Source of the DNA: Mycobacterium branderi
Lineage (GTDB): Bacteria > Actinomycetota > Actinomycetes > Mycobacteriales > Mycobacteriaceae
Direction of reading: 5' to 3'
Length of the DNA stretch: 64,000 bases
Assembly: GCF_010728725.1 (NCBI RefSeq)
Contig: NZ_AP022606.1
Location: 558,001 to 622,000, forward strand
A program made the position numbers and the translations under genes. Numbering within the stretch: position 1 is the first letter of the stretch; each line of letters begins with the position of its first letter. The notes below the pieces were generated by a model. It ran no database searches. It was given only the letters and a program-made list of their open reading frames with translations, and was not told the DNA's origin. This document shows positions 47,304 through 50,810 of the stretch, in pieces.

Positions 47304-50810
<3,507 letters not shown>

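What the first reader, a model, noticed from the sequence alone, without database searches (positions are those of the whole stretch)
49464..49466. RpoB carries Asn at the Ser531 (M. tuberculosis Ser450) position
The codon is AAC, giving HKRRLNALGPGG. Ser at this site is the most frequently mutated residue in rifampicin-resistant M. tuberculosis and contacts the drug. Reaching AAC from the usual TCG needs three base changes (two from TCC), so this looks like a fixed species trait rather than a recent resistance mutation. It predicts raised rifampicin MIC. I recall Asn here being reported for some naturally less susceptible mycobacteria but cannot verify which.
Basis: partly seen in the sequence, partly recalled or inferred. 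Interest (0 to 1): 0.7.

Follow-up and report, generated by a model that had tools for sequence, protein, structure and literature searches.

The report
Natural rifampicin-site Asn with partner residue
This mycobacterium's RNA polymerase naturally carries asparagine where rifampicin-resistant tuberculosis bacteria usually mutate, a trait already reported for a related species; the new part is that, in the actinobacteria sampled, this asparagine often reappears together with the same second change elsewhere in the protein.

Summary
rpoB lies on the minus strand (47304-50810); the codon at 49464-49466 is AAC, Asn at E. coli 531 / M. tuberculosis 450. It is the genome's only rpoB. Asn is shared by four species genomes and occurs separately in the M. 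hubeiense lineage: 5 of 230 readable genus genomes, the other 225 Ser. It is not new in print: PMC13246000 reports S450N in M. branderi; M. kyorinense papers report a replaced Ser531. E. coli S531N gives resistance (PMC7073797). This strain's MIC is unknown.

What I did not find in print: Asn531 is coupled to Ile453 (window 371, codon 49698-49700). In the window's family 11 of 11 Asn proteins have Ile453; 302 of 302 Ser proteins have Leu. Across 487 RpoBs, 21 independent Asn/Ser pairs show 12 Leu-to-Ile changes with Asn, none reverse; the next column reaches 8 (position 587). Of 81 Ser/Ser control pairs none shows it. Five Asn lineages keep Leu453. I read Ile453 as a compensatory or permissive partner; structural contact and fitness were not tested.

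The parts
47304..50810 (-). rpoB, RNA polymerase beta subunit, 1168 aa; only copy found in the genome
49464..49466 (-). codon AAC, Asn449 of the window protein = E. coli 531 = M. tuberculosis 450
49458..49538 (-). rifampicin resistance-determining region (E. coli 507-533), same letters as in the 225 Ser-bearing genus genomes read, except for the Asn
   Evidence: 38-residue stretch: two versions only, 225 and 5 of 230
49698..49700 (-). codon ATC, Ile371 of the window protein = E. coli 453 = M. tuberculosis 372; partner residue that changes with Asn531
49296..49298 (-). codon ATC, Ile505 of the window protein = E. coli 587 = M. tuberculosis 506; weaker, only suggestive third partner (Val in 63 of 114 Ser-bearing Streptomycetaceae-type proteins)
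43317..47267 (-). rpoC, next gene; in 12 hand-picked pairs no RpoC column stands out (best net 4 of 12, at a variable site)

Best explanation
A natural rifamycin-target variant of RNA polymerase. Asn at 531 replaces a serine that lines the rifamycin pocket and so lowers drug affinity (resistance shown for E. coli S531N in a paper, inferred here). It was fixed by the ancestor of this four-species clade. It is held together with Ile at 453, which restores or permits normal polymerase geometry next to a bulkier residue 531; Ile587 may be part of the same packing. Shown here: the residues, the sharing by four species, the recurrent parallel change. Inferred: lower drug affinity in this species, and that the 453 change acts by compensation.
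For: Residue, single copy, sharing in the clade. In E. coli deep mutational scanning S531N conferred resistance to higher rifampicin concentrations (PMC7073797, passages); the E. coli record read has Ile453. All 9 M. kyorinense strains with a numeric value had RIF 32 in the table, with residue 531 replaced (PMC3647647). No Arr in the window genome, its three clade mates or G013 (0 of 5); no Rph at NCBIfam cut-off in the own-genome PPDK_N ORFs that I scanned (two of the smaller hits were not scanned). Coupling: window's family 11/11 Asn with Ile, 302/302 Ser with Leu; 21 independent pairs, 12 L to I, 1 L to V, 5 both Leu, 3 both Ile, 0 reverse; supported branches only: 17 pairs, 10 same way, 0 opposite, 7 no difference, sign test p 0.002; in 200 distance-matched Ser/Ser sets no column reached a net parallel change of 12 (maximum 9), and site 453 never changed in them.
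Against: No MIC for this strain. A protein record named M. kyorinense (P0258) carries Ser531 and Leu453, against the published statement; one M. kyorinense case report has rifabutin MIC 0.5 beside rifampicin >4 (PMC11880685, passages). Five Asn lineages keep Leu453, so Ile is not strictly needed. Promicromonosporaceae and relatives carry Ile453 with either residue at 531. The order Asn first, Ile later is not significant (Mann-Whitney p 0.19). I had no coordinates, so contact of 453 with 531 is untested. All three protein searches were seeded with Asn-bearing proteins, which enriches Asn rows. The tree is of RpoB itself.
Confidence: 0.66

Rival explanations
1. Ile453 came first and is only permissive; Asn531 then drifts in without any role of a drug.
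For: In Promicromonosporaceae and relatives Ile453 is the rule (120 of 120) and Asn531 is common (57 of 120) (this search was seeded with an Asn-bearing Promicromonospora protein). The E. coli record read has Ile453 with Ser531.
Against: No Ser protein with Ile453 was seen among 302 in the window's family or 114 Streptomycetaceae-type proteins, while Asn with Leu453 exists in five lineages.
Confidence: 0.2
2. Asn531 and Ile453 were imported together as one allele by recombination.
For: In a few of 15 pairs the 340-420 bin is more divergent at third positions than most other bins (L091/L110 0.31, L082/L088 0.30, L043/L044 0.27).
Against: Other pairs show no excess (L038/L037 0.10, L081/L042 0.10); Asn lineages lie in many families, and the Ile codon differs within the clade (ATC and ATT).
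Confidence: 0.06
3. A recent clinical resistance mutation or a sequencing error in one strain.
For: None found.
Against: Four species genomes share AAC with 95.3-96.3% identical rpoB DNA. In the 114 readable RpoBs of the window's protein search, the eight with Leu or Trp at 531 all keep Leu453.
Confidence: 0.01
4. The species is rifampicin-insensitive for another reason (drug modification, efflux, polymerase protection), and Asn531 adds little.
For: PMC13246000 concludes that drug modification dominates in mycobacteria. Rgt, Rox, HelR and efflux were not tested here.
Against: No Arr; no Rph or HelD at family cut-off in the ORFs scanned (not every hit was scanned and some ORFs were cut by the locus end).
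Confidence: 0.15

Closest known systems
S450N of Mycobacterium branderi RpoB (PMC13246000, eLife 2026; sections 6, 8, 9, 10 and passages read)
   Same: Same residue, same position, otherwise conserved RRDR; the window genome may be this species or a near relative (inferred, not shown).
   Different: The sections read look at the RRDR only and do not mention position 372/453 or the recurrence across Actinobacteria.
Mycobacterium kyorinense RpoB, residue 531 replaced (PMC3647647 and PMC4200164, both read whole)
   Same: Replacement of Ser531 in all strains sequenced there, rifampin MIC 32.
   Different: Written as Asp, not Asn. None of the four clade genomes here has Asp, and a record named M. 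kyorinense (P0258) has Ser.
E. coli S531N (PMC7073797, passages read)
   Same: Same substitution, resistance to higher rifampicin concentrations.
   Different: Laboratory mutant; the E. coli record read already has Ile453.
rpoB(R) / rpoB2 of Nonomuraea and Nocardia (PMC5431353, passages read)
   Same: Natural rifamycin-site variants in actinomycetes.
   Different: Second gene copies with H526N and S531Y; here one rpoB was found.

Membership tests
Naturally rifamycin-resistant RpoB target variant | Fixed substitution at a rifamycin-contact residue of the RRDR | tested here: met
   Asn at 531 in 4 of 4 clade genomes; contact role of 531 from PMC7073797 (passages)
Naturally rifamycin-resistant RpoB target variant | Raised rifampicin MIC in the species | not testable with these tools
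   Only literature on presumed relatives: PMC3647647, PMC12062092 passages on rifabutin in M. celatum
Naturally rifamycin-resistant RpoB target variant | Resistance not explained by drug-modifying enzymes | tested here: inconclusive
   Arr absent in 5 of 5 genomes; own-genome ORFs scanned stay below the Rph cut-off, not all PPDK_N hits were scanned; Rgt, Rox and efflux not tested
Duplicated rpoB (rpoB2 / rpoB(R)) system | Second rpoB gene in the genome | tested here: not met
   one match in the own genome
Acquired clinical rifampicin resistance | Differs from close species | tested here: not met
   shared by four species genomes; other strains of the same species were not examined
Compensated resistance (second-site RNA polymerase change) | Second-site change that recurs with the resistance substitution | tested here: met
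   12 L to I and 1 L to V in 21 independent pairs, 5 without change, 3 already Ile, 0 reverse; 10 of 17 on supported branches, 0 opposite
Compensated resistance (second-site RNA polymerase change) | Second change comes after the resistance substitution | tested here: inconclusive
   Asn/Leu seen in five lineages, Ser/Ile not seen in Leu453 groups, but the timing test gives p 0.19
Compensated resistance (second-site RNA polymerase change) | Second change restores fitness or polymerase activity | not testable with these tools
   needs enzymology or growth tests

The most novel reading that the evidence does not exclude
Residues 453, 531 and 587 of the bacterial beta subunit form one packing unit next to the rifamycin pocket. 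In Leu453 lineages Asn531 is a natural resistance state that is stable over species time mainly when 453 becomes Ile; this hidden dependence, together with the two to three base changes needed from TCG/TCC, would help to explain why Asn is so rare at this site in clinical isolates.
Probability: 0.4. Interest if true: 0.7.

Novelty: new variant of a known kind. Interest (0 to 1): 0.5.

Why it matters
Asn at this site should make these species read as intrinsically rifampicin-insensitive and may confuse molecular tests that treat any RRDR change as acquired resistance. The wider value is the pair: nature has repeated much the same two-residue experiment in many lineages, which gives a direct, testable case of epistasis around a much-studied antibiotic-resistance residue, at a partner site outside the RRDR.

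Tried and rejected
Looked for a second rpoB, a sequencing error, Arr and Rph, joint import of both residues, and co-change in RpoC: none supported. The RpoC test was weak: 12 pairs picked by hand, not checked for shared branches, RpoC cut where the loci end; best net change 4, at a site that differs in 10 of the 12 pairs. Tried to name the species: 12 kb of the own genome's second contig (864 kb) had no match in the plasmid collection, where records near the own genome may be left out. The species name rests on resemblance only. Paper searches for the partner position and for further spellings of Asn531 gave nothing relevant except PMC4200164. Papers asked for and not held.

Rows dropped before counts: of 232 rpoB loci fetched for the genus (396 genomes drawn, 384 with a match), 230 were readable at 531 (L319 and L349 are fragments); L264 is a second copy of G011 and was left out. 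Family: 83 of 112 matching genomes outside the genus were read, mostly the better-scoring ones. Named loci: 79 of 80 by the first motif; the 80th (L011, Nocardia anaemiae) has Ser531 with Asn at 526 and is in the later sets. Protein sets: 119 of 120, 120 of 120 and 114 of 120 listed proteins were readable. The 487-row set took the 5 genus Asn rows, 70 randomly drawn genus Ser rows plus those of five chosen relatives not among them, all 83 family and 80 named rows, 239 proteins of the first two searches and 6 of the 120 of the third. One of the 81 Ser/Ser control pairs differs Ala/Leu at 453.

Full report
Observation. The window holds rpoB on the minus strand at 47304-50810, followed by rpoC. 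The codon at 49464-49466 is AAC on that strand. Alignment to an E. coli rpoB record and to M. tuberculosis RpoB puts it at E. coli 531 and M. tuberculosis 450. The own genome gave a single rpoB match. The 38-residue stretch around the RRDR has two versions in 230 readable genomes of the genus, 225 with Ser and 5 with Asn, otherwise letter-identical.

Fixation. RpoB of G318, G379 and G071 is 99-100% identical to that of the window and carries the same AAC, while rpoB DNA of the four differs by 3.7-4.7%. On a 231-row tree built without the codon these four form one group with full local support; Asn needs three changes among the genus, family and named rows in it. The fifth Asn genome, G013, lies elsewhere in the tree and its RpoB is 99.9% identical to a protein named M. 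hubeiense. Proteins named M. fragae and M. xenopi carry Ser.

Literature. PMC13246000 (sections 6, 8, 9, 10 read) states that M. [quoted passage not shown] PMC3647647 (read whole) states that all M. kyorinense strains sequenced had residue 531 replaced, by Asp, with rifampin MIC 32 in the nine strains with numbers, and cites M. celatum as another case. PMC4200164 (read whole) repeats Ser531Asp. PMC11880685 (passages) gives one isolate with rifampicin >4 and rifabutin 0.5. PMC7073797 (passages) reports S531N as a higher-resistance change in E. coli. PMC11123600 (passage) lists S531N among many changes in tuberculosis samples with discordant tests, so the statement that it is unseen in clinical isolates is not absolute; PMC9118847 (passage) tested for Ser531Asn and found none. 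PMC12062092 (passages) names M. celatum as an exception to the good activity of rifabutin. A protein record named M. kyorinense (P0258) has Ser531 and is 99.9% identical to the RpoB of G094, not to this clade, so that record and the published statement do not agree; I cannot settle it.

The partner. Comparing the clade with the other 204 genus rows of that alignment, window residue 371 (E. coli 453, M. tuberculosis 372) is Ile in the clade and in G013 and Leu in the remaining 203. In a 90-row actinobacterial set it is the column most strongly associated with Asn531 (Fisher 7e-9, next column 7e-5; not corrected for kinship). Extended: genus 225 Ser/Leu, 5 Asn/Ile; family outside the genus 77 Ser/Leu, 6 Asn/Ile; Streptomycetaceae-type proteins 114 Ser/Leu, 3 Asn/Ile, 2 Asn/Leu; Promicromonosporaceae and relatives 63 Ser/Ile, 57 Asn/Ile; proteins of the window's own search 104 Ser/Leu, 2 Asn/Ile, 7 Leu/Leu, 1 Trp/Leu. 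All three protein searches were seeded with Asn-bearing proteins, so these counts are not frequencies.

Control for kinship. On a tree of 487 RpoBs built without the two sites, 21 Asn/Ser pairs share no branch. In 12 the Asn row has Ile where its Ser partner has Leu, in 1 Val for Leu, in 5 both Leu, in 3 both Ile; never the reverse. The next columns reach 8 (window 505, E. coli 587, Val to Ile) and 4. Of eighty-one independent Ser/Ser pairs none shows a Leu/Ile change (one is Ala/Leu). On supported branches of a second tree without the three sites: 17 pairs, 10 same way, 0 opposite, 7 no difference, p 0.002; for 587 18 pairs, 5-6 same way, 0 opposite, p 0.03-0.06. In 200 distance-matched Ser/Ser sets the best column anywhere reached 3-9, never 12; 3 of 200 reached 8 or more, so 587 is only suggestive.

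Reading. Asn531 is a recurrent natural target variant; Ile453 is its usual partner. In Leu453 groups I saw Asn/Leu five times and Ser/Ile never (0 of 302 and 0 of 114), which fits Asn first and Ile as compensation, but the timing test on branch lengths is not significant (p 0.19), and in Promicromonosporaceae and relatives Ile453 is the background. RpoC shows no comparable column in 12 hand-picked pairs (best net 4), and third-position divergence gives no consistent sign of joint import in 15 pairs, though three show a raised bin. From recall, not from a call: E. coli 446-451 and 538-547 line a DNA-contact pocket of the fork region, which would place 453 near 531; this needs coordinates.

Other resistance. 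No Arr family member in five genomes examined. Of the own-genome PPDK_N hits I scanned four ORFs: one reaches the cut-off of a phosphoenolpyruvate synthase family, the others stay far below the Rph cut-off (346 bits or less against 999); one of them is cut by the locus end, and two smaller hits were not scanned. Of six UvrD_C_2 hits three ORFs were scanned: a RecD at its cut-off and two PcrA/UvrD-like helicases below theirs, with HelD scores of 40 and 46 bits against 419. HelR, Rgt, Rox and efflux were not tested as such.

Verdict. The coupled position 453 is, as far as reach, not in print, and lifts the finding from a known oddity to a useful natural experiment.

Noticed in passing
L011 (Nocardia anaemiae), RRDR: The fetched RpoB has Asn at E. 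coli 526 with Ser531 (TNKRRLSA); PMC5431353 describes the same 526 change in an rpoB2 of another Nocardia.
   Followed up: no
L057 (Amycolatopsis kentuckyensis), RRDR: RRDR reads SQFMQQTNPIDGLTHKRRLN: several unusual residues besides Asn531.
   Followed up: no
own genome G000:C2 (864 kb second contig), 11506-12410 and 856347 onward: Two PPDK-type genes that also match prodigiosin/undecylprodigiosin ligase profiles, far below cut-off; the first is split over two frames.
   Followed up: partly
G000 16S genes, C1:4206899-4208434 and C1:3033359-3034893: Two 16S rRNA copies on opposite strands; the loci around them are 99.3% identical over 3169 aligned bases. PMC3647647 cites two different 16S copies in M. 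celatum.
   Followed up: partly
P0258, protein named M. kyorinense: Carries Ser531/Leu453, against the published Ser531Asp for that species.
   Followed up: partly
window residue 334 (T to I) in four Asn pairs: A further column with 4 parallel changes and no reverse, within what control sets give.
   Followed up: no
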